A DNA stretch of 37,609 nt from a virus. Made by a program: the position numbers and the translations under genes. This document shows, piece after piece, positions 12,008 to 27,430 of this stretch. Location: positions 1-37,609 of IMG/VR virus record IMGVR_UViG_3300031250_000004. One strand, given 5' to 3'. Below the pieces are notes generated by a model that was given only the letters and a program-made list of their open reading frames with translations, was not told the DNA's origin and did not search any database. Numbering within the stretch: the first letter of the stretch is position 1; each line of letters opens with the position of its first letter.

Positions 12008-12243
12008 AACGGCTCCAGTGAGTCGGCTGAGTCAGGTTCTGTAACTGGTAGTGGCATCTGCACTAGACGTGGTGGCCTAGGATACGAGCACCGGCAAACC
12101 TTAGCCCATGCCTTGGCGTGTTTTAGTACCTCGATCAACTCGTCAATATTTTCCGGATCAATATCGACACTTGATCCGTATTTTGCGCCGATCTCAATTA
12201 CGAATTCTGAACTGACTCTAACCTCTGGCAATTGGCTTTTCAT
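12004..12243 (-). CDS. Hypothetical 79-residue protein
   Basis: The start is taken at ATG 12243-12241 because it overlaps the TGA of the exonuclease gene (12242-12240), the same ATGA arrangement used throughout this operon. A longer upstream start would overlap the exonuclease by about 70 bases. The protein begins MKSQLPEVRVSSEF, has an acidic helical centre (DPENIDELIEVLKHAKAWAK), and ends in a Pro-rich tail with two cysteines before it. No family recognised. Confidence 0.6.
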   Translation of the reverse strand: MKSQLPEVRVSSEFVIEIGAKYGSSVDIDPENIDELIEVLKHAKAWAKVCRCSYPRPPRLVQMPLPVTEPDSADSLEPL

Positions 12244-13127
12244 ACAAACGACTCTCCTTTCGGCAACGGCTCGCCGCCGAACCGTGCTACTGCACGCTCC
12301 ATATCCCACGTGCTAGCCTCGACGACATGAGTTGCACCGGGCTCCACATACTCTCGCCACACGTTCGTCGCGAGGCATTCAGCCCATCTACGTTGTGCAT
12401 ACTGCCACTTCATCTTTCCGATCATGGCCGCTTCGTGTGACAGTCGCGCCGGGGTAATGCAGTACGGTTCGGACGTTTCACAAAAAAGCAGAGTGAAATC
12501 GTCCTGGCCATCGGAGTCAACGGAAACCAGCTCGCGAATCGCCTCCGTGTAAGCTGCGTGCTGAATGTCGTAGCCCATTGATTTTACCTGACGGTCGATA
12601 AAGTCGGGGTGTGCACATTCGGTGAACTTCAGATCGAGAGCTTTCGGTCCCTCGATATTATCGATTCTCGCTTTGCACTGGCACCCATTTTTCGACCAGA
12701 ACATAGCAACTTCGCAGTGTTCTGGCTCGAACCAGATGCCTATGTGTCGCAACTTCTCGCGGATGATTTGAGCCGAGCTGACGAGTGATCCTTGCTCGCC
12801 GTACTCCTTATTTTTGAGCGGAATCACACCGCGTGCAATTGCTTCGTCACGACGTTCCCGAGCCAACTTGGTCTTGTAGTCGTCGAACGGTATCAGCTCA
12901 ACCTCGGGCAGTGGCTTACCGAGCATCAGTGCGTGGCAGATGGTACCGACGTCCATCGCGTGAGTTGTGCGGAATGGTTTGCCACCAAGCCTAGGGTGCG
13001 CATCGCGAGCGTGACGTTCGGACTGGCTGACAAGTATCTTTGCGATCGACTGCGAGAGTGATGGTGTCTCGCAGGGGTCGGCGCGGTATTTGTCCTCAGG
13101 ATAGTTGTATGAAATGCAGTGCATCAT
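12240..13127 (-). CDS. RecE-like PDDEXK exonuclease (exonuclease VIII family, DUF3799-type)
   Basis: A 295-residue protein. The start at 13127 (ATGATG) overlaps the upstream TGA. Family hallmarks: GTICHALMLG at 61-70 with His65, Glu139 (HCEVAMF), KARID with Asp156, then DLK with Asp165 and Lys167, and Gln189-x3-Tyr193 (IQHAAYTEA). This is the His/Glu/Asp/Asp-x-Lys/Gln-Tyr order of RecE/lambda-exonuclease-like PDDEXK nucleases. Such enzymes resect double-strand ends 5' to 3' to give 3' overhangs for single-strand annealing. The usual RecT/Beta partner is not recognisable beside it; the 11600 gene is the only candidate of similar context. The leftward operon is probably early. Confidence 0.85.
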   Translation of the reverse strand: MMHCISYNYPEDKYRADPCETPSLSQSIAKILVSQSERHARDAHPRLGGKPFRTTHAMDVGTICHALMLGKPLPEVELIPFDDYKTKLARERRDEAIARGVIPLKNKEYGEQGSLVSSAQIIREKLRHIGIWFEPEHCEVAMFWSKNGCQCKARIDNIEGPKALDLKFTECAHPDFIDRQVKSMGYDIQHAAYTEAIRELVSVDSDGQDDFTLLFCETSEPYCITPARLSHEAAMIGKMKWQYAQRRWAECLATNVWREYVEPGATHVVEASTWDMERAVARFGGEPLPKGESFV

Positions 13128-13654
13128 GTGACAGTCTCCAATCGCAACAGAGCCTCGCGACAATCGGCGATCTGTTGTTTGCGAGCTTCGGTCCAGCGAG
13201 AAGCAGCGAAAGCAGCAGCATTAGCAGCATCAGCAGCAGCATTAGCAGCATCAGCAGCAGCATTAGCAGCATCAGCATTAGCAGCCCAGCGAGCAGCGTT
13301 AGCAGCACCATCAGCAGCATCAGCAGCGTTAGCAGTAGCCCAGCGAGCAGCAGCAGCAGCATCAGCAGCATTAGTAGCAGCAGCATTAGCAGCCCAGCGA
13401 GCAGTGTTAGCAGCAGCATCAGCAGCAGCAGCAGCAGCAGCGGCATCAGCAGCCCACTTGTGTGCTAGAGCAATGAGAGCATGACGGTCGTAGCGCGCCA
13501 AGACATTACACGCTCCCCAAATGCGATCAACATCTGGAATTTCGAGGTCAATCAGCTGAATCGGCGTCAGTCCTGAATCTGGAACGAGCTCAGCAATGCG
13601 CTCGTCTTTGTAGCACGCGTTCCAATTGCGCAGTAGTTGTCGGGTGATGATCAT
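13124..13654 (-). CDS. Alanine-rich heptad-repeat protein, first gene of the leftward operon
   Basis: A 176-residue protein with ATG at 13654-13652 and a good GGAG ribosome site 7 bases upstream. Residues 1-65 are an ordinary globular N-terminus (WNACYKDERIAEL; LTPIQLIDLEIPDVDRIWG) of a type seen in many phage proteins ahead of Ala-rich repeats. Residues ~68-155 are almost only Ala with Asp/Asn/Thr and recurring Lys/Arg-Trp pairs, including three DAANAAA heptads. The last ~20 residues are charged (RWTEARKQQIADCREALL). This should form a long single helix or alanine coiled coil. Function is unknown. Other frames of the repeat are also open but lack start signals and globular ends. Confidence 0.75.
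   Translation of the reverse strand: MIITRQLLRNWNACYKDERIAELVPDSGLTPIQLIDLEIPDVDRIWGACNVLARYDRHALIALAHKWAADAAAAAAAADAAANTARWAANAAATNAADAAAAARWATANAADAADGAANAARWAANADAANAAADAANAAADAANAAAFAASRWTEARKQQIADCREALLRLETVT
13211..13273. repeat. Three perfect 21-bp tandem repeats
   Basis: Units 13211-13231, 13232-13252 and 13253-13273 are identical and encode, on the minus strand, a seven-residue DAANAAA unit. They lie in a larger imperfect GCA/GCT-type triplet tract (about 13200-13455). Because the unit is 21 bases, expansion or loss keeps frame. Confidence 0.9.
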
Positions 13655-15470: not shown

Positions 15471-15859
<389 letters not shown>

Positions 15860-15868
15860 TTGAATCAC

Positions 15869-18198: not shown

Positions 18199-20871
18199 AT
18201 GAACCAAGTCCTAGTCCCTACGTTACGAGGTGCACGTATCAAGTCATGGCCCGAGCACGAGCAGGGAGGTTTCGCAAAGTATGAGTCATTGAGTGACGTT
18301 TTGGTGACTGACTACAAGACGGACGTTCACTTTGCCCAGTACTCACGTCCGCAATGCACACGACGGCTCTGCAGTGACGCACTGAAGTCGCCGCACATCG
18401 AGAAGCTGTTCGGCTCTGTCGTCATGCCGATCATTGTCTTTGACGTTGACGGCGAGGACCACAAGGCGTCCGAGTCGTGGCGCAAGGCTGAGCGAGTCAA
18501 AGTGCTGCAGCTGCAGGTGGAGCACCCTGGCGTGTACATGTACGAGACCCGCCACGGCTATCGACTCGTCGCGGTGCTCGAGCAACCCATGCTGCTCACG
18601 TGCTCCGAGTCAGCAAAGGAGTGGAGCAAGCAATACCTGCTCAATGTCGCCTACCTCAAGCGAGTCTTCGATATCAGAGCCGATCCGCTGCATGATTGGA
18701 CCAGACTTTTCCGCGCTCCACATGCGACGCGCGACGAAGGGGGGCGGCCAGAAAACTACCCGTCCATGGGCGACTCTAACAACGTCGGAACATGGGTCGC
18801 GCCAGCATTCACGCCCGAGGACGACCTCGTTGCAGCGACATTGGGCAAGCGCCCGCCAAAGGACCCTAAACCTCGTCCTGAGCGTGGCCAGGTCAATTAC
18901 ACGGGCCGTGGCGTAATTGGTCGCTTGCTTGAGCAAGACGGCCTCCTCGGTGAGCAGGTCGAGCCCGGGGTATGGTCAATGACGTGCCCCAATGCCAGAG
19001 AGCACAGCAGCGGAGAGCCGTTCGACTCGACCTGCCGGTACTACGAGCCCAACACGCTCGGCCACTACCTCGGTACCATCGATTGTCTGCATACGAGCCA
19101 CGGGCACAACCTCTTCGGGAGCAAAGAATGGCTCAGTGGATGGTCGCAGGACAGGATAGACGACGCGCGCAAGGCGGAGGGGCTACCAGAGTTCAGGCGG
19201 CGGCAACCCGCGCCACAACGCAACGTCGAGCAACCCGAAGCCCATCGATGCGAGACATCGATGCCCGAGGACGACCTGTGGGCAGGCGAGGTACTGGACG
19301 ACTCCGGCGACGATGACGCAGTTTCGTCCGACCCCACCGAGCACGACCCGAACTGGGGGGGGCTCACTGACTTGGGCAACGCCGAGAGATTCGTCGCGAT
19401 GCACGGCAAAAATGTGCGTTACAGCTACGCCAAGAAGAAGTGGTACTTTTGGTGCGGCACCCACTGGGAATTGGACGAGGATGGCGCTACGCAGCGGCTC
19501 ATGAAGCAGACGGTTCGCAGCCTGTACAAGGTCGCCAACGACTGTCCTGACCGAAACAAGGCCAAGGACTACGCGGCTTGGGCATACAAGTCCGAGGCCT
19601 CCCCGCGCATCCAAGCGGCACTCATGCTCGCGCAATCCGAGGTTGGGATACCAGTCAACTCCGACGCATTCGACTCTGATCCGTGGCTTTTCAACTGCCA
19701 AAACGGGATCCTTGACCTACGCACGGGAAAGCTTGGCAAGCATGATCGCCTGCAGCTGATGACTCGGATTAGCCGAGCCAGCTACGATCCAGACGCTGAC
19801 ACGACAGTCTGGCTCCAATACCTCGACAGCTCCACCTACGGAGACACGGGGCTGCAGCGGTACCTACAACGCGTGGTCGGGTACTCAATGACGGCCTTCA
19901 CCACGGAAAAGTGCTTCTTCTTCTTCTATGGCCCTCCAGACTCGAGCAAGAGCACGTTTCTTAAAGTGGTGGGCAACACGTTCGGGACCTACGCGGCCAA
20001 CGTCGCCAGCAGCACCTGGCTCGTACAAAACAACGTCGGAGGCAACCGAGGTGACATTGTGAGGCTCGCAGGCGTTCGACTCGTAACGAGCTCAGAAGTA
20101 AAGAAAGGCTCGAAGATTGACGAAGAATTGATGAAGAGTGTGACTGGGTCGTGTGATCCGCTGACCTACGCGGCCAAGTATGAGAACGAAATTGAGATAA
20201 TGCCGCAGTTTTCGCTCTTTTGGGCAGCCAATGACCCATTGCTAATCAGAGATGAGGACGCCGCAATGTGGAGAAGGGTGAGGCGGGTCCCGTTCGCTCA
20301 CACGATACCAATCGAGAAGCAGAACCCAAAACTGGTCGAGCAGATGGCAAGACCGGCCATGTTATCAGCAATCCTCAAGTGGGCGCTGGACGGCTGTCTA
20401 GAATGGCAACGGCTAGGTGGCCTAGGAACGTGCGACGCAGTGGCCGACAGCAGTGAAAAGTATCGAAACGAGATGGACCGCTCTGCAGACTTCATTCGCG
20501 ACTACCTGGAATTCTTCCCGAGCTACAGCTGCCCGACGTCTGAATTGAGAGAAAATTATGAAACCTGGTGTTCGGACAGAGGAATCAGAAGACCAATCAC
20601 TGTCCAGGAATTCGCAAAGAAACTAGAGCAAAAAGGCTGCGAAACGAAGAAAGGACACCACGGTAGAAGATTCTGGATGGGCGTTAGGCTGAACACATCA
20701 GGTGGCGTAGGTGGCGAACAAGACGATTTCCCCCAAAGTATTTCATCTCAAAATCTCATGGGAAAGTCTGGGGAAAACACCAACCATCGCCACCTACGCC
20801 ACCAGGACGACTCTGACGACGTTATGACCGACCAGCCGTTATTCTCCAAGGACGAGCTGGACAAGTTGTGA
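18199..20871 (+). CDS. Primase-polymerase/D5-like replicative helicase
   Basis: An 890-residue protein. ATG 18199 is preferred because AAAGG lies 6 bases upstream. The N-terminal ~250 residues resemble an archaeo-eukaryotic primase (prim-pol) fold, with FDVDGE near 80-85 supplying the acidic D-x-D and HGYRLV near 118. Residues ~410-560 are the D5 N-terminal region (WYFWCGTHWELDED; FNCQNGILDLRTG). The SF3/D5 ATPase follows: Walker A GPPDSSKST (~577-586), a TSSEVKKGSKIDEELMKSVT segment, and WAANDPLLIRDED with an MWRRVRRVPF arginine motif. The C-terminal ~90 residues are charged with a winged-helix-like piece. It should prime and unwind phage DNA and is the only polymerase-like enzyme in the genome. 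Confidence 0.88.
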   Translation: MNQVLVPTLRGARIKSWPEHEQGGFAKYESLSDVLVTDYKTDVHFAQYSRPQCTRRLCSDALKSPHIEKLFGSVVMPIIVFDVDGEDHKASESWRKAERVKVLQLQVEHPGVYMYETRHGYRLVAVLEQPMLLTCSESAKEWSKQYLLNVAYLKRVFDIRADPLHDWTRLFRAPHATRDEGGRPENYPSMGDSNNVGTWVAPAFTPEDDLVAATLGKRPPKDPKPRPERGQVNYTGRGVIGRLLEQDGLLGEQVEPGVWSMTCPNAREHSSGEPFDSTCRYYEPNTLGHYLGTIDCLHTSHGHNLFGSKEWLSGWSQDRIDDARKAEGLPEFRRRQPAPQRNVEQPEAHRCETSMPEDDLWAGEVLDDSGDDDAVSSDPTEHDPNWGGLTDLGNAERFVAMHGKNVRYSYAKKKWYFWCGTHWELDEDGATQRLMKQTVRSLYKVANDCPDRNKAKDYAAWAYKSEASPRIQAALMLAQSEVGIPVNSDAFDSDPWLFNCQNGILDLRTGKLGKHDRLQLMTRISRASYDPDADTTVWLQYLDSSTYGDTGLQRYLQRVVGYSMTAFTTEKCFFFFYGPPDSSKSTFLKVVGNTFGTYAANVASSTWLVQNNVGGNRGDIVRLAGVRLVTSSEVKKGSKIDEELMKSVTGSCDPLTYAAKYENEIEIMPQFSLFWAANDPLLIRDEDAAMWRRVRRVPFAHTIPIEKQNPKLVEQMARPAMLSAILKWALDGCLEWQRLGGLGTCDAVADSSEKYRNEMDRSADFIRDYLEFFPSYSCPTSELRENYETWCSDRGIRRPITVQEFAKKLEQKGCETKKGHHGRRFWMGVRLNTSGGVGGEQDDFPQSISSQNLMGKSGENTNHRHLRHQDDSDDVMTDQPLFSKDELDKL

Positions 20872-22721
20872 ATCAACGGGCCTACACCCCCAATTTGGAG
20901 CATGCTGGACTCATGACCGACGGACTATCAGGCAGGGAGCGGCGCCGCCAACGAAGCAAACAATCGCTCGTGACTAAGAGTGTGAAGTGTGTGGACAAGC
21001 AACCAGTACCGCCTGCTCCAGATCCGCCGCTGCCCGCACCACGTGGCGCCAGGCAACACAAAAACCCGCTCAACGACAGATGGCCCACAAAGCCGATAGA
21101 GACCGCAGCGCAGCTCGCTGAGCGCATGCGGATCAAGCTGCAGCGCAAGAGAGAGGCCAGGGCCATCCTAGCTGCGGAGGGCGTGCTCCCGGTCCAGGGC
21201 AGACCAGACCGCCCCGAGACACCGCCGGCGAAGTGGCTCCGCACTGGTCCAGGGGCGAGGACAGCAGCGCGCGTCGCAATCTACGACACCATGGTCGGGC
21301 TCGATGCAACGCTCGTGTCACGTGGGCACCGGAGACTCACTGAGTCATGGCGCTTGATCCTAGAGCGGTGGTTGTGCAAATCGAACGCGCTGACGCTCAC
21401 GATCCGCAAGGGCAGGCGCGTCGGAGCATCGACCATCATTGCACCGCGTATCATCGTCTCGTGGATACGAGTGGTGTTGCCGCGGCTCGACCTGCCTCCA
21501 GGCGAGATCGTGGTGGTCGGCCTCGTATCGGTGCGACGTGGTGAGGCGGCGAATCGAATCGCGCAGATTGCGGCGGTGATGACCGCGTGCAACATGCTGC
21601 ATCGAGCCAAGGGCGATGAGATTGAGATGGTGGGCGCGCCCATCCGAGTGCGTGTGCTGACAAAAAACTGGCGCAGTGCAGTCGGCGAAAACATCGGGCT
21701 GCTGTGGTGCGATGAGGTATCGCGCTGGGAGTCAGAGGACTCGAGCGCGAACCCGGCGAGTGAAGTGATCGGCTCACTCAAACCAACGCTAGCGACACTG
21801 CAGACGATGGGCTACGCGCTGATGGTACTGAGTTCGTCACCGTGGAGCGAGGATGACTACCACGCGAAGCAGTACGATCGCGGAGACACCGAGGACCAGT
21901 GCACAGCGTTTCTGCCGACATGGGAGGGCAATCCTACGTTGAGCGAAAAGCAGACTCACCTCCTCGAACCTGATGAGCGCACGTGGGCACGAGAGTACGC
22001 GGCGATACCAGGCAACGTGCTCTCGCAGGCACTTGACCAGGACGACGTCAACGCAGCGTTTGGCATGGTGGTACCTGTTGGTGACCTGCGACGCTGGTGC
22101 TGCATTGACGCAAGCTCACTGCGCGGCGACGCGTTTGCCTGGATGGTTGGGCACGAGGCTCGGGGCGGACTTGTTGCTGATAAGATTGGTGGTTGGAGCG
22201 ACGCGTCACTACGCGACCTGTCACTCGACACCGTCGTCGCAGAGATTGCTGGCGAGTGCAGAGCGCGCGGTATCACTCGAGTCTGGGGCGACCAACGCGA
22301 AGAGGCTGGACTGCAGGTGCTGTTCCGGCAGCAACAACTCACGTTCGAGTCATTCGCATGGTCCAACACGAGCAAGCACGACGCGTTCACAATGCTCCGC
22401 CGGCTGCTACGAGATCGGCGCGTGCAATTGCTCGAGCACGCAGAGCTACGTACTCAGATGCGCAGCTGCAAGGCGCGCCTGCTGCCCGGTGGTGCCACGA
22501 GCTACGAGACCAATGGCCTCGACTACCTGAGCGCGCTCATCACGCTGATGCACGGCTACGAGACTCACTACCCGCAGGCTCTGTCGCAGATACTCTCAGG
22601 TCGCATCCTGGATGCTCCCGCGACCGCGGAGGAGGCAGCGCGCAGACTCGCGGAGGAGCAGCGCGTCAAACACCGGCGAGAGGCTGAGAGGCGAGCCAGG
22701 GTCCGGGGCAGGCGGTACTAA
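20868..22721 (+). CDS. terL: Terminase large subunit
   Basis: A 617-residue protein starting at GTG 20868, which overlaps the primase-helicase TGA. Residues 1-135 are a long basic, Pro-rich extension. ATPase: RKGRRVGAST at ~178-187 is a deviant Walker A lacking Lys before Ser/Thr, with Lys near the start of the loop as in lambda gpA. Walker B is IGLLWCDEVSRWE (~275-287) and the coupling motif MVLSSSPWS is near 320. Nuclease: acidic residues in CIDASSLRGDAFAW (~412), VWGDQREEAG (~472) and SKHDAFTMLRRLL (~503), the three-Asp pattern of terminase RNase-H folds. It packages DNA into the prohead. No typical small terminase gene is adjacent. The portal is 4.8 kb downstream. Confidence 0.9.
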   Translation: MNQRAYTPNLEHAGLMTDGLSGRERRRQRSKQSLVTKSVKCVDKQPVPPAPDPPLPAPRGARQHKNPLNDRWPTKPIETAAQLAERMRIKLQRKREARAILAAEGVLPVQGRPDRPETPPAKWLRTGPGARTAARVAIYDTMVGLDATLVSRGHRRLTESWRLILERWLCKSNALTLTIRKGRRVGASTIIAPRIIVSWIRVVLPRLDLPPGEIVVVGLVSVRRGEAANRIAQIAAVMTACNMLHRAKGDEIEMVGAPIRVRVLTKNWRSAVGENIGLLWCDEVSRWESEDSSANPASEVIGSLKPTLATLQTMGYALMVLSSSPWSEDDYHAKQYDRGDTEDQCTAFLPTWEGNPTLSEKQTHLLEPDERTWAREYAAIPGNVLSQALDQDDVNAAFGMVVPVGDLRRWCCIDASSLRGDAFAWMVGHEARGGLVADKIGGWSDASLRDLSLDTVVAEIAGECRARGITRVWGDQREEAGLQVLFRQQQLTFESFAWSNTSKHDAFTMLRRLLRDRRVQLLEHAELRTQMRSCKARLLPGGATSYETNGLDYLSALITLMHGYETHYPQALSQILSGRILDAPATAEEAARRLAEEQRVKHRREAERRARVRGRRY

Positions 22722-22725
22722 TCCC

Positions 22726-22806
22726 GGCCCCGTGAACTATCTTCGCGAGCACCAACGAATTAGTTGGCGCATGCGATAATCTCTGCCATACTAGTTTTGT
22801 CAGTAC
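22726..22806 (+). repeat. Promoter cassette repeat, copy A
   Basis: From 22732 to 22805 this matches 23261-23334 at 63 of 74 positions with no gaps. Seven of the eleven differences fall together in the promoter spacer and three just before the conserved AACGAATTAGTT segment. The upstream GTGAACTATCTTCGCGA segment is identical in both copies and may be an activator or operator site. Confidence 0.85.
22764..22792 (+). promoter_or_regulatory. Promoter candidate, cassette A
   Basis: TTGGCG (22764-22769), a 17-base spacer and CATACT (22787-22792). Both hexamers are conserved in cassette B while half the spacer is not, which is the pattern expected for a working promoter. The transcript should begin near 22799. 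Confidence 0.65.
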
Positions 22807-22964
22807 GGAAACGAACTGACAGGGTCAGACGAGGCCCTCCAAACCCAAGTGGCTCGGCACTCAAACGACGAGCAAGGCAGCACGGAAAGACGGCACGTAC
22901 GCCCACGGAGCCAAAGTGGCTGAACAGAGCCTGACCGACCCGGCACCCCGAAAGGGGCCCGGGT
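22799..22964 (+). ncRNA. Hairpin-rich structured leader RNA of cassette A
   Basis: The expected transcript begins with a hairpin: GTCAGT (22799-22804) pairs with ACTGAC (22815-22820), closing a CG-GAAA-CG tip. Further stems: 22821-22826 with 22833-22838; 22852-22856 with 22869-22873; 22909-22913 with 22917-22921; and ACCCGG (22938-22943) with CCGGGT (22959-22964), enclosing CCCC-GAAA-GGGG. Two GNRA-type GAAA tetraloops and five stems in 166 bases are unusual. No U run follows, so it looks like a regulatory 5' leader rather than a terminator. The homologous cassette B lacks it. The start of the 22994 gene follows after an AGGGAG ribosome site. No known riboswitch class recognised. Confidence 0.4.
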
Positions 22965-22993
22965 TGAGGCAGTAGAAGCAGGGAGAAACGCAA

Positions 22994-23248
22994 ATGACCA
23001 ATTCAATGCAAAATCGAATCGCAAGCCTGAAACAAGAAGCCGCGCAAGCTGGGGACGACGACATGGTCGAGATGATCATTCGCGCGTCTGAGTATGCCGC
23101 ACTGTGCGACAGTGACACGGATGAGTACCTCACTCCAGAGGACCTCGGGGTATCGCTCACCGAGTATCTGGAGGGCGTCATTGAGTCGCTAGATGCATGC
23201 GAAGGCAACGTCCGCGTTAATGGTCGCCGAGTGTACGCGTTTACCTGA
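22994..23248 (+). CDS. Small acidic protein, paralogue A
   Basis: An 84-residue protein with ATG 22994 behind CAGGGAG. It is acidic and helical at the N-terminus (LKQEAAQAGDDDMVEMIIRA). From residue ~38 it shares a pattern with the 23347 product: CDSDTDEYLTPEDLG matches YDSETNESLTAEDLG, and EGNVRVNGRRVYA matches EGHVRVGGHGRRVYA. No known family. With the duplicated promoter it forms the first of two cassettes. Confidence 0.7.
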   Translation: MTNSMQNRIASLKQEAAQAGDDDMVEMIIRASEYAALCDSDTDEYLTPEDLGVSLTEYLEGVIESLDACEGNVRVNGRRVYAFT

Positions 23249-23255
23249 TTCGACC

Positions 23256-23335
23256 GGCCCGTGAACTATCTTCGCGACCGCTAACGAATTAGTTGGCGCA
23301 TGCGATAAAAAGGCGCATACTAGATTTGTCAGTAG
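23256..23335 (+). repeat. Promoter cassette repeat, copy B
   Basis: Second copy of the block at 22726-22806, beginning GGCCC then GTGAACTATC. After GTCAGTA the two copies diverge: copy B goes directly to AGGGAGAG and the start codon 12 bases later, where copy A has about 160 extra bases. Confidence 0.85.
23293..23321 (+). promoter_or_regulatory. Promoter candidate, cassette B
   Basis: TTGGCG (23293-23298), 17 bases and CATACT (23316-23321). The transcript would start near 23328, giving a 19-base leader with GGGAGAG as ribosome site for ATG 23347. Confidence 0.65.
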
Positions 23336-23346
23336 GGAGAGACACA

Positions 23347-23547
23347 ATGACCAAAATCAACACCAGCAAATCGTCACTCCAAACCCAGACGCTATACGAC
23401 TCAGAGACCAACGAGAGCCTGACCGCTGAGGACCTAGGGATTAGCGACGCTGCATACGAGCATCTAGTCGGTGAGTCGATGTCCACCGAGCAACCCGAGG
23501 GTCACGTGAGAGTCGGTGGCCACGGCCGCCGAGTATACGCACAGTAG
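23347..23547 (+). CDS. Small acidic protein, paralogue B
   Basis: A 66-residue protein. ATG 23347 is chosen over upstream starts because those would lie inside the promoter and because GGGAGAG sits about 7 bases before it. It shares LT-EDLG-S and EG-VRV-G-RRVYA with the 22994 product, so the two genes and their promoters arose by duplication. The N-terminal 20 residues are Ser/Thr/Lys-rich and unlike paralogue A. Function unknown. Confidence 0.7.
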   Translation: MTKINTSKSSLQTQTLYDSETNESLTAEDLGISDAAYEHLVGESMSTEQPEGHVRVGGHGRRVYAQ

Positions 23548-23560
23548 TCGCCACCCATTC

Positions 23561-23600
23561 CGCCCCCGCCCGCCCCTGAAATAATGGCGGGCTTGGGGCG
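23561..23600 (+). promoter_or_regulatory. GC-rich hairpin before the 23618 gene
   Basis: CGCCCC (23561-23566) pairs with GGGGCG (23595-23600) and CCCGCC (23569-23574) with GGCGGG (23586-23591), with an 11-base AT-rich loop. No U run follows, so it is a weak terminator candidate. It ends just before the GAGAGGA ribosome region of the next gene and may protect or control its mRNA. Confidence 0.45.
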
Positions 23601-23617
23601 TCGAGAGGACCCGGAAA

Positions 23618-23971
23618 ATGGCAAACACACTGAGACCGAGCATCCACAAATCCCCGTCACCCGTCACCGCACATGGTGACCTATGCGGCATCCTGACCAA
23701 CCGAAGCACCTCTGGAGTCGTCTCGATTGGTATTGCAGCGGCGCTCGCTACCTGCGGTATTGTGGCCACTGTCATCGTATCCGGGCAGTCGATATCTGTG
23801 ACACACGAGAGTGACCTGCAGGCAGCACTGACCCATGTCGTGCGACCTCTGCAGTACGACGCTGCTCTCGAGTCACGAGTGCCATCTGTCCCGTCCTACT
23901 GGTACAGCGATGACGCGGCTATCGTGTGCCAGGTAGGTGACTACTGCATTAAATTGGAGACAGCAAAATGA
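23618..23971 (+). CDS. Single-TM hypothetical protein
   Basis: A 117-residue protein with ATG 23618. Residues ~33-55 form one hydrophobic segment (VVSIGIAAALATCGIVATVI) preceded by a polar N-terminus, so it is probably an inner-membrane protein with the C-terminal ~60 residues outside. Two cysteines near the end (IVCQVGDYC) could pair in the periplasm. No family recognised. Its last codons overlap the next ATG. Confidence 0.6.
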   Translation: MANTLRPSIHKSPSPVTAHGDLCGILTNRSTSGVVSIGIAAALATCGIVATVIVSGQSISVTHESDLQAALTHVVRPLQYDAALESRVPSVPSYWYSDDAAIVCQVGDYCIKLETAK

Positions 23972-24282
23972 GTCACATACCAATCGACAAACAACTACGA
24001 GCGCATGGGTTGCGACGCGCTAAGACAGGAGAGGACGCGCTGGTGGTCTGTCTGTCTCACAAAGGCGAGTCGCTGGCAATTTCCGCAGTGCAGATGCCAA
24101 TCGTGCTCGATGAGATGGTGGTCGTTGTACTGCGTGCATTCGCTGGTACTCTATGGGCTCGGTGTCCCGAGCTGACGCTGAATCAATTACGCATGGCAAT
24201 GTGCGTCTACTCCGAGCAGATTGGAGCAACCGATGCAGAGGTTACGCAGGCGTCGCTACGATTGGAGCTTGTGCGCGAATGA
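23968..24282 (+). CDS. Hypothetical 104-residue protein
   Basis: ATG 23968 overlaps the upstream TGA. The protein is mixed alpha/beta by eye (GEDALVVCLSHKGESLAISA, then VLDEMVVVVLRAFAG and a helical end). No motif assigned. It is followed by an HTH gene with another ATGA overlap. Confidence 0.55.
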   Translation: MSHIPIDKQLRAHGLRRAKTGEDALVVCLSHKGESLAISAVQMPIVLDEMVVVVLRAFAGTLWARCPELTLNQLRMAMCVYSEQIGATDAEVTQASLRLELVRE

Positions 24283-24521
24283 CTGCCAGTAAAAATCCCG
24301 TCGCAGTAGCGCTCGGTGCTTGCCTCGAGTGCCCCTCAGAGCACAGACTACACCGCGTCGCAGTGTCCTACGTTCTGGCGCGAGTCGCAGAGCATCACTA
24401 CCAATCAGACGCGGCCGAAGCCATCGGTGTGAGTCCGACGTATCTCAGTATCTTGATGACCAAATACCCAGAGCTCAAACCATTCCCCTCGTGGGCCAGC
24501 AAACGGAGACCAGAAAAATGA
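24279..24521 (+). CDS. Small Fis-type helix-turn-helix protein
   Basis: An 80-residue protein with ATG 24279 overlapping the previous TGA. Residues ~28-65 (VSYVLARVAEHHYQSDAAEA, IGVSPTYLSILMTKYP) match the helix, AAEAIGVS turn and recognition helix of Fis/NtrC-type DNA-binding domains. It could regulate the late operon. It could also be a minimal small-terminase DNA-binding subunit, since terL is upstream and no other candidate is obvious. The basic tail SKRRPEK fits DNA contact. Confidence 0.6.
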   Translation: MTASKNPVAVALGACLECPSEHRLHRVAVSYVLARVAEHHYQSDAAEAIGVSPTYLSILMTKYPELKPFPSWASKRRPEK

Positions 24522-24799
24522 CCACTACGCTTCGCCCCGCCAAGAGCCTCGTGAATCTCGCCGCTGATCTGCTCGTGCTGCGAGCCAAAGAGCTACTTGC
24601 CATCATCGGACCAACGAAGAGCGACTCAGTCATGGCGCTCAGTGACGCTATCCACATGTACACCGATGCGCGCATCGACAGCGAAATCACCGAGTCGATG
24701 GACATTCTGCTCGCTCCTGTCGATGCGGCACTTAAGATTTGTGACGAGCAGTCGTTAGAGTTTGAGAAGGTCATGCAGCAGATTGAGAGCGAATCATGA
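24518..24799 (+). CDS. Hypothetical helical protein
   Basis: A 93-residue protein with ATG 24518 overlapping the previous TGA. It is almost entirely helical (LVNLAADLLVLRAKELLAII; DILLAPVDAALKICDEQ) and acidic at the end. No membrane segment or family recognised. Its stop overlaps the ATG of the lipoprotein-like gene. Confidence 0.55.
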   Translation: MTTTLRPAKSLVNLAADLLVLRAKELLAIIGPTKSDSVMALSDAIHMYTDARIDSEITESMDILLAPVDAALKICDEQSLEFEKVMQQIESES

Positions 24800-25236
24800 A
24801 TATCCAATATTGCCAACCCGAACCAAACATCACCGATCTAGCTCGCCGAGAACGTGGCGCCCGACTCGAGTGCGAACGCCTCGCTGCTCAAATCGAATCG
24901 ACCATCAAGCGCGCGATTGCACTGGCGGCTCTACTCGCGTTGAGCGCTTGCGGGACACCAGGTACTGAGGACGCGCCGAGCAGCACAACGCTCGAGCAGA
25001 CTGACGCTGGTGTGTCGTGCACCATTGAGCTGTGCGGAGTTGCGCACTCGGGACTCTGTAGCTCCAAGTACGGAGACGTCGTGTATCACGTGGACGGAAT
25101 GGGTGCAGCGCCAGGCGAACCGTCATGGTGCTCCACCTCTGACCAGGGCGATCACTGGACTACGTGCTGCGCTGTTTGGTGCACTCCAGGTGACGACGCA
25201 ACGTTTGAATACCAGTGCGGGACGGTAGCAAAGTGA
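24796..25236 (+). CDS. Cysteine-rich lipoprotein-like protein with internal lipobox
   Basis: A 146-residue protein with ATG 24796 overlapping the upstream TGA. Residues 37-52 (IKRAIALAALLALSAC) read exactly like a lipoprotein signal with lipobox LSAC and Cys52. It is preceded by 36 charged residues, and no usable start codon lies directly before the signal. The mature part has about ten cysteines (e.g. CTIELC, WCS, TTCCAVWC), consistent with an exported disulfide-rich domain. It may be an envelope component of the lysis block (o-spanin-like) or a surface lipoprotein altering infection. The long pre-signal extension is odd. Confidence 0.6.
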   Translation: MNIQYCQPEPNITDLARRERGARLECERLAAQIESTIKRAIALAALLALSACGTPGTEDAPSSTTLEQTDAGVSCTIELCGVAHSGLCSSKYGDVVYHVDGMGAAPGEPSWCSTSDQGDHWTTCCAVWCTPGDDATFEYQCGTVAK

Positions 25237-25293: not shown

Positions 25294-25319
25294 CGCCGGT
25301 AGCTACACCGCCACCGGCG
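25294..25319 (+). promoter_or_regulatory. Short hairpin before the holin-like gene
   Basis: CGCCGGT (25294-25300) pairs with ACCGGCG (25313-25319) around a 12-base loop, directly followed by the GAAGGAA ribosome site of the 25335 gene. It could limit or time translation of the lysis gene. Confidence 0.4.
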
Positions 25320-25334
25320 GAAGGAAAAACAACC

Positions 25335-25787
25335 ATGATCAATTGGAAAACGACACTAGGCGCTATCGTTCTCGGAACATTGGGAATTCTGCAAACCACT
25401 CTAACGGCGTACCAAAACGGTACGCCAATTCAATGGCTACAGGTAGCAATGTGCATTGTCGTGATGGCTCTCGGGCTAGTCATGAAAGACTTCGATGTCA
25501 CCGGCAACGGTAAGACAGCGACGACGGCAACCAAGTCCACGCTAGTCACGCTAGCGTCTATCGTGTTGCTTGCTGGGTGTTCATCGACGCAACTCGTTGC
25601 CGCAACTGCAAGCAATGGAGATCAGTTTCCGTACTGCCTCGAGGTCACATTCCACGTGCAACCACTGCAGGCTGACACACTGTTTTGCGCAGGTCTGAGC
25701 ACGATTCAAGCTGAGCAAGCGAAGCAATCTGCACTACATCCAGAGAACACGTACACCATCGTTGAGCAACACAAGGTGACAAAGTGA
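25335..25787 (+). CDS. Holin-like membrane protein with an internal lipobox
   Basis: A 150-residue protein with ATG 25335 behind AAGGAA. Residues 1-50 resemble small phage holin-type proteins (INWKTTLGAIVLGTLGILQT; WLQVAMCIVVMALGLVMKDF). Residues 68-82 (STLVTLASIVLLAGC) then form a perfect lipoprotein signal with LAGC and Cys82, followed by a ~65-residue domain with two further cysteines. No frameshift is needed: one open frame joins both parts. It may be a holin fused to an outer-membrane lipoprotein, a spanin-like envelope bridge, or a fusion assembled by deletion. Its stop overlaps the next GTG. Confidence 0.6.
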   Translation: MINWKTTLGAIVLGTLGILQTTLTAYQNGTPIQWLQVAMCIVVMALGLVMKDFDVTGNGKTATTATKSTLVTLASIVLLAGCSSTQLVAATASNGDQFPYCLEVTFHVQPLQADTLFCAGLSTIQAEQAKQSALHPENTYTIVEQHKVTK

Positions 25788-26182
25788 ACCGATTTCTACG
25801 CGCCACGATTAGCGCACTACTCACGTTCGCTTGCGGCTCGACCAGTGGCGTGACGGCAACAGGCTCCGGAGTTGCGGTATCCGTCATGGTCGGGACTCAG
25901 TCCTACGCGTGCTCAGCAGTGCAGCCACACACGGGCGGTTCTGCCGGTGTCGGAGGCTCGGTGTCAACCGGTGGCGCTCCTGGCACTGGCGGTGCACTGG
26001 CGACCGGCGGCAAGGCTGCTACGGGTGGGGCTAGCGCATCCCCTGGCAATACAGCGAACTGCATTGCTGCGCTATCCAAAGACGTAGCGCTCAAAAATGT
26101 TGCAGCTCAGCAGGGAATCACAATCAAGACACTCGCAACCAAAATGTGCGCTGACCCCAACATCCTGTCGAGGTATCCATGA
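25784..26182 (+). CDS. Secreted protein with Thr-Gly-Gly repeat linker
   Basis: A 132-residue protein with GTG 25784 overlapping the upstream TGA. Residues 1-17 form a signal (NRFLRATISALLTFAC), possibly a poor lipobox. Residues ~50-85 are a linker of STGGAPGTGG, ALATGGKAATGG type, the kind common in exported Myxococcota proteins. The last ~45 residues are a small domain with two cysteines (NCIAALSKDVA ... TKMCADP). It lies between the holin-like and protease genes, so it probably acts in the envelope. Function unknown. Confidence 0.6.
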   Translation: MNRFLRATISALLTFACGSTSGVTATGSGVAVSVMVGTQSYACSAVQPHTGGSAGVGGSVSTGGAPGTGGALATGGKAATGGASASPGNTANCIAALSKDVALKNVAAQQGITIKTLATKMCADPNILSRYP

Positions 26183-26859
26183 GCCAACTAGTTCGACTGC
26201 AACCTGAGATCATCGTACCCGGCAAGCGACTGGGGCGACACGTATCGATTGACCCGCGCAGAGAGCAGCACGGAGTTCGTTCGCTGCCTCGCTCTGCCAT
26301 CAGGACCATCGAATGGAAGCGCAATGTCCCAATCTTCGACCAAGGCGACGTTGGTTCATGCGAGGGCAACGGAGCCGCCGGAACACTTTCGACGGCCCCA
26401 TTCACGAACAAATTCGATGAAGCAGAAGCGGTCAAGATTTACACGCTGGCCACGCAACTCGATAGTATCCCAGGTACCTATCCCACAGAGGACACCGGAA
26501 CCGATACTACGAGCGCTTGGAATGCGTGCAAACAACTCGGACTTGTCAAGAGCTTCGCTAATGCCTTCTCGCTCACCGATATCCTGACGGCGCTGCAGAG
26601 CGGGCCTGGTGATGTTGGTTGGGATTGGTACGAGGGTTACGACAGCCCAGATGGCAATGGACTTGTGAAGCCCACTGGCGCAGTACGTGGTGGGCATTGC
26701 ATCGAGTGCGTTGGATGCGACATGGAAGCGCGACTGCTCAAGTTCGCAAACTCGTGGGGCCCATCGTGGGGCAAAGACGGATATTTCTACATCTCGTTTG
26801 AGCACGCGGAATCCATGATGGCAACTGACGGTGATTCAATTTTTCCGAGCGTGGCATGA
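26179..26859 (+). CDS. Papain-like (C1-family) cysteine protease
   Basis: A 226-residue protein with ATG 26179 overlapping the previous TGA. All catalytic elements are visible: DQGDVGSCEGNGAAG with oxyanion Gln (~55) and nucleophile Cys61, GGHCIECVGCD with His173, and FANSWGPSWG with Asn191. The ~50-residue N-terminal segment could be a short propeptide. There is no signal peptide. Its place just before an NlpC/CHAP-type hydrolase suggests a lysis role, such as cleaving envelope proteins or peptide cross-links, or else processing of virion proteins. The first is an inference from position. Confidence 0.85.
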   Translation: MSQLVRLQPEIIVPGKRLGRHVSIDPRREQHGVRSLPRSAIRTIEWKRNVPIFDQGDVGSCEGNGAAGTLSTAPFTNKFDEAEAVKIYTLATQLDSIPGTYPTEDTGTDTTSAWNACKQLGLVKSFANAFSLTDILTALQSGPGDVGWDWYEGYDSPDGNGLVKPTGAVRGGHCIECVGCDMEARLLKFANSWGPSWGKDGYFYISFEHAESMMATDGDSIFPSVA

Positions 26860-27365: not shown

Positions 27366-27396
27366 ATTCCGAGCCTCACCATGTCGGGCGAATAAG

Positions 27397-27430
27397 CCCC
27401 GGTGCCATGCTGGTGCCGGGGTTTTTCTTT
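27397..27430 (+). terminator. Rho-independent terminator after the lysis block
   Basis: CCCCGGTGCCA (27397-27407) pairs with TGGTGCCGGGG (27411-27421) including two G-U pairs, with a 3-base loop, followed by TTTTTCTTT. Strong canonical form; it separates the lysis block from the structural operon. Confidence 0.9.

What the first reader, a model, noticed from the sequence alone, without database searches (positions are those of the whole stretch)
22726..23547. Tandem promoter-plus-gene cassettes with selective conservation
Two blocks (22732-22805 and 23261-23334) match at 63 of 74 bases without gaps. The -35, -10, an upstream GTGAACTATCTTCGCGA element and the AACGAATTAGTT segment are unchanged, while seven of the eleven differences fall in one contiguous stretch of the promoter spacer. 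Each drives a small acidic protein, and the two proteins share EDLG and VRV-G-RRVYA motifs. This is a duplicated, separately controlled unit placed between terL and the membrane-protein block, with unknown function.
Basis: partly seen in the sequence, partly recalled or inferred. Interest (0 to 1): 0.65.

Follow-up and report, generated by a model that had tools for sequence, protein, structure and literature searches.

The report
Twin operator-controlled phage accessory gene cassettes
A bacterial virus carries two tandem copies of a control region, each with a hidden 34-base mirror-symmetric regulator site and each driving a related small acidic protein, and an otherwise different virus carries the same unit once in the same place, so this is a swapped, regulated accessory (possibly anti-defence) unit rather than chance.

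Summary
In detail: 22732-22805 and 23261-23334 match at 63/74 bases, and 7 of 11 differences are contiguous (22780-22786). The two proteins (84 and 66 aa) are true paralogues. There the dyad is stronger (14/17, best in that contig), the core is a perfect palindrome, and the frame is kept (55% protein identity). G001 is a contractile-tail phage with a TerL unrelated by BLAST; its copy also lies directly after terL, and the block is better conserved than the genes (64/74 bases versus 62% coding identity). (3) Downstream in both phages is an 80-aa helix-turn-helix protein, 95% identical. Best reading: an autoregulated accessory operon working like acr-aca loci, with the HTH protein binding the dyad and the acidic proteins acting on the host or its defences. 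Shown: conservation, dyad, synteny, homology. Inferred: promoter activity, which protein binds, sign of regulation, protein target. No family or fold match exists. Only two phages are known.

The parts
22732..22748 (+). Conserved upstream element, copy 1 (GTGAACTATCTTCGCGA; the first 16 bases are also invariant in G001)
22743..22776 (.). 34-bp dyad, proposed operator, copy 1 (13/17 pairs; core 22754-22765 AACGAATTAGTT)
   Evidence: joint best 34-bp dyad in the window
22764..22792 (+). Proposed promoter P1: -35 TTGGCG 22764-22769, 17-bp spacer, -10 CATACT 22787-22792 (start site about 22799, inferred)
   Evidence: consensus match 8/12 only
22800..22993 (+). 194-nt leader of gene A, absent from the other two copies; folds only slightly better than shuffled, no Rfam match
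22994..23248 (+). Cassette gene A, 84 aa, acidic; N-terminal helical part plus conserved C-terminal domain
23261..23277 (+). Conserved upstream element, copy 2
23272..23305 (.). 34-bp dyad, proposed operator, copy 2 (12/17 pairs; core 23283-23294)
23293..23321 (+). Proposed promoter P2: -35 TTGGCG 23293-23298, -10 CATACT 23316-23321
23347..23547 (+). Cassette gene B, 66 aa, acidic; keeps only the C-terminal domain
23561..23601 (+). GC-rich hairpin without T-run between gene B and the next gene (by eye); similar hairpins follow the G001 cassette gene
23618..23971 (+). 117-aa small protein, not shared with G001
23968..24282 (+). 104-aa protein, 71% identical in G001
24279..24521 (+). 80-aa predicted helix-turn-helix protein, 95% identical in G001; candidate regulator of the dyad
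24518..24799 (+). 93-aa protein, overlaps the HTH gene by 4 nt; the DNA from here to 24932 is 73% identical in G001
27394..27424 (+). Intrinsic-terminator-like hairpin that probably ends the accessory and lysis operon

Best explanation
The two blocks are phage promoters (P1, P2) that share one operator, a 34-bp dyad overlapping the -35 and centred near -40, plus an upstream element. They drive paralogous small acidic accessory proteins and read on into a tightly packed small-gene operon that includes an 80-aa HTH protein. That protein probably binds the dyad as a dimer and shuts the promoters down once it accumulates, giving an early burst of the acidic proteins. This is the logic of anti-CRISPR/Aca operons. 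The acidic proteins most likely act on the host or its defences. Shown: block and dyad conservation, paralogy, synteny, conservation of the HTH gene, presence after terL in two otherwise different phages. Inferred: promoter activity, HTH-dyad pairing, repression rather than activation, protein targets.
For: Third copy with the same spacing in G001; 57 of 74 columns invariant in all three, the variable run being the last 7 bases of the -35/-10 spacer, as expected for a promoter. Dyad scores of 13, 12 and 14 of 17; W1 is joint best in the window and L007 best in its contig; sliding the centre by up to 15 bases left or 29 right drops the three-copy sum from 39 to 25 or less. The block occurs nowhere else in either phage, so it belongs to this unit. 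HTH protein 95% identical, dN 0.037 and dS 0.67, predicted HTH helices, weak HTH matches. Genes from 23618 to 25236 overlap by 4 nt each. Aca operons have one inverted repeat inside the core promoter and an HTH gene downstream; Aca1 is 79 aa (PMC9410906); Aca10 sites overlap -35 and -10 (PMC9410881).
Against: Only two phages support it. No transcription or binding data. The HTH call rests on weak profile matches and a two-sequence model (pLDDT 80). Core promoters are weak by the E. coli consensus, which also fits activation. A GC-rich hairpin lies between gene B and the rest of the operon. No similarity to any known or solved protein was found for the acidic proteins.
Confidence: 0.45

Rival explanations
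1. Activated promoters: the dyad is a class-II activator site (centre near -40) for a host or phage activator, and the blocks switch on the accessory and lysis operon in the middle or late phase.
For: Dyad position overlapping a weak -35; a second conserved element at about -68 to -52; the blocks stand between the replication/terL genes and the accessory, lysis and head genes; terminator-like site only at 27394-27424.
Against: In G001 the lysis module (85% nt identity) is far from the block, so the block is not tied to lysis; no activator gene identified.
Confidence: 0.3
2. The block is a shared DNA site kept as a recombination joint, so that phages of one host can swap or stack small cassettes by homologous or site-specific recombination; promoter function is secondary.
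For: The same module occurs in two phages with different virion genes, one of them contractile-tailed, at the same place; direct repeats flank gene A.
Against: Conservation follows promoter anatomy (variable spacer end, fixed -10 and start region), which a recombination joint does not need; no recombinase seen next to it.
Confidence: 0.12
3. The block is a packaging (cos/pac) or replication-origin site beside terL.
For: It lies just after terL in both phages; dyad plus flanking element.
Against: The TerL proteins are not similar by BLAST, although both match PHROG 2, so a shared packaging site is unlikely; two copies 529 bp apart; each copy is followed by a kept gene.
Confidence: 0.04
4. The dyad acts as an RNA hairpin in read-through terL transcripts.
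For: W1 and L007 fold into the dyad hairpin.
Against: W2 does not fold into it, and z-scores are only -1.4 to -1.9; no T-run.
Confidence: 0.05

Closest known systems
Anti-CRISPR (acr-aca) operons with Aca autorepression (PMC9410906, PMC9410881)
   Same: Small proteins first, small HTH protein downstream, inverted repeat inside the core promoter overlapping -35, module found in otherwise different phages.
   Different: No sequence similarity to Acr or Aca proteins found in the libraries searched; several genes and a GC hairpin lie between cassette and HTH gene; the operator-promoter is doubled with a paralogue per copy; no CRISPR inhibition shown.
Start-associated sequences and extended SAS of Cluster K mycobacteriophages (PMC3203893)
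   Same: Conserved DNA, including inverted repeats, placed before a subset of small phage genes.
   Different: SAS are 13-bp elements at the translation start, 11-19 per genome; here 1-2 long blocks per genome with -35/-10 spacing.

Membership tests
acr-aca operon | HTH protein encoded downstream in the same operon | tested here: inconclusive
   Predicted HTH protein about 730 nt downstream of gene B, joined by 4-nt overlaps from 23618 on; gap of 70 nt with a GC hairpin after gene B
acr-aca operon | Inverted repeat within the core promoter | tested here: met
   34-bp dyad overlapping -35 in all three copies; that the site is a promoter is itself inferred
acr-aca operon | HTH protein related to a known Aca family | tested here: not met
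   No significant match by phmmer to solved chains (Aca1 and Aca2 structures exist), none in NCBIfam or PADLOC; Aca-specific models were not available
acr-aca operon | A gene product that inhibits CRISPR-Cas | not testable with these tools
   Needs a plaque or interference assay; host unknown
Cluster K SAS/ESAS | Many copies of a 13-bp element at translation starts | tested here: not met
   Only two blocks in the window and one in G001

The most novel reading that the evidence does not exclude
A new anti-defence protein family, with its own Aca-like regulator and a twin operator-promoter that lets a phage stack paralogous inhibitors, passed between phages of different virion type that share a host.
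Probability: 0.22. Interest if true: 0.65.

Novelty: new variant of a known kind. Interest (0 to 1): 0.45.

Why it matters
It gives a specific, cheap test (does one 80-aa protein bind one 34-bp site?) for an orphan regulatory unit, and a handle for finding small phage effectors by their operator rather than by protein similarity: the control DNA is better conserved (64/74) than the proteins it drives (55% identity).

Tried and rejected
Chance similarity: rejected. Known families or folds for the acidic proteins: none in Pfam, PHROGs, NCBIfam, PADLOC, PDB sequence, or PDB and BFVD folds; a weak S4-domain-like match of the VRVNGRRV end (E 0.097) was not pursued. More relatives: GenBank phages, plasmids (57; one hit at E 0.1, inside a PAS-domain protein, not convincing), IMG/VR by protein, profile, HTH, C-terminal motif and block pattern (16, 30, 31, 36, 39), genome contigs (32, 40): only G001. 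Five of the six 16-mer hits (L002-L006) lack the rest of the block and are chance. Structured leader RNA for gene A: no Rfam match, z -2.0. tRNA: none. G001 CRISPR spacers against the window: no convincing match (longest exact match 13 nt). Single-subunit RNA polymerase promoter set: unlikely, as only two blocks exist in the genome. The host was not established.

Full report
Setting. The window is an IMG/VR virus record of 37,609 bases. By PHROGs it holds a helicase, endonuclease and D5-type primase, then TerL (20868-22721), then a small-gene region, a papain-like peptidase and a CHAP-like protein, then portal; an internal-virion-protein-like gene lies near the window's start. No tail-sheath or tape-measure family was matched among the proteins scanned, so a short-tailed virion is likely but not proven.

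The observation. The two blocks match at 63/74 without gaps, with seven contiguous differences at 22780-22786. The next best same-strand match in the window is 35/74. The proteins A (84 aa) and B (66 aa) are homologous over a C-terminal stretch of about 50 residues (54%). B lacks the N-terminal helical part that A shares with the G001 homologue.

A third copy. Searching IMG/VR for GTGAACTATCTTCGCG gave six hits; five lack the rest of the block, but L007 (contig IMGVR_UViG_3300014494_000009, here G001) carries the whole block followed by a start codon and a homologous 83-aa gene. In 74 columns 57 are invariant; pairs score 64 (W1-L007), 63 (W1-W2) and 59 (W2-L007). Block 1 is thus as close to the other phage's block as to its own neighbour, so the duplication need not be recent. 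Coding identity of A with the G001 gene is 62% at the nucleotide level (dN 0.45, dS 0.94): the non-coding block is the better conserved part.

The dyad. AACGAATTAGTT is the core of a longer symmetric site. Counting Watson-Crick pairs over 17 bases on each side gives 13, 12 and 14; W1 ties for the best such dyad in the whole window and L007 is the best in its contig. Shifting the centre by up to 15 bases left or 29 right lowers the three-copy sum from 39 to 25 or less. In G001 the core is a perfect palindrome (AACTAATTAGTT). The site covers the proposed -35 and the first part of the spacer; its centre lies at about -40 if transcription starts about 7 bases after CATACT. The hexamers (TTGSCG, CATACT, 17 bp) are weak by the E. 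coli consensus and are not listed by the >=9/12 scan. The block occurs nowhere else in either phage.

A module shared by different phages. G001 has a tail sheath, baseplate wedge and tape measure, and its TerL has no BLAST similarity to the window's, though both match PHROG 2. Yet both carry, directly after terL, block and cassette gene, a few unshared small genes, a 104-aa gene (71%), the 80-aa HTH gene (95%; in G001 its frame runs on to 122 aa) and the next gene. They also share a lysis-type module at 85% nucleotide identity, but at different map positions. This fits module exchange among phages of one host.

The candidate regulator. The 80-aa protein gives weak HTH matches (PHROG 7126 E 0.013; HTH_3 E 0.07) and a model with three helices in HTH arrangement (pLDDT 80, two sequences). 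Its best partial fold matches include LysR-type and NtrC/Fis-type DNA-binding domains, none significant. It is better conserved than its 104-aa neighbour (dN 0.037 against 0.22).

Mechanism. An inverted repeat inside a core promoter, small accessory genes and a downstream HTH gene is the plan of acr-aca operons (PMC9410906, PMC9410881). I take autorepression by the HTH protein as most likely (0.45), activation through the dyad as the main rival (0.3). I do not file the unit as an acr-aca member: no Aca relative was found and CRISPR inhibition is untested. The acidic protein models well (pLDDT 87) but matches no known fold.

Limits.

Noticed in passing
L007:1535-3201 (- strand; IMGVR_UViG_3300014494_000009): The related phage G001 encodes a 471-aa TnpB/Cas12f-like protein followed directly by a 4-repeat CRISPR-type array (36-nt repeat, 34-36-nt spacers). 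Alignment to solved TnpB-type nucleases shows the RuvC-I Asp replaced by Ser and the RuvC-III Asp by Arg, so it looks nuclease-dead: a possible phage-borne RNA-guided silencer comparable in logic to Cas12m2 (PMC10442227) or TldR.
   Followed up: partly
window 25314-26846: Lysis-type module (small lipoprotein-like genes and a papain-like peptidase) 85% identical in DNA to G001 although head and tail genes differ: a recent exchange.
   Followed up: partly
window 15480-15863: Open frame made almost only of Met-Ala/Leu-Ala repeats (MAMAMALALAMATAM...), a simple repeat between a small gene and the helicase.
   Followed up: no
window 22800-22993: 194-nt GC-rich leader before gene A, missing from the other two cassettes, with a strong CCCGG-CCCC-GAAA-GGGG-CCCGG hairpin; origin unknown.
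   Followed up: partly
window 12240-13163 (-): Exonuclease VIII-like gene on the minus strand, against the direction of nearly all other genes.
   Followed up: no
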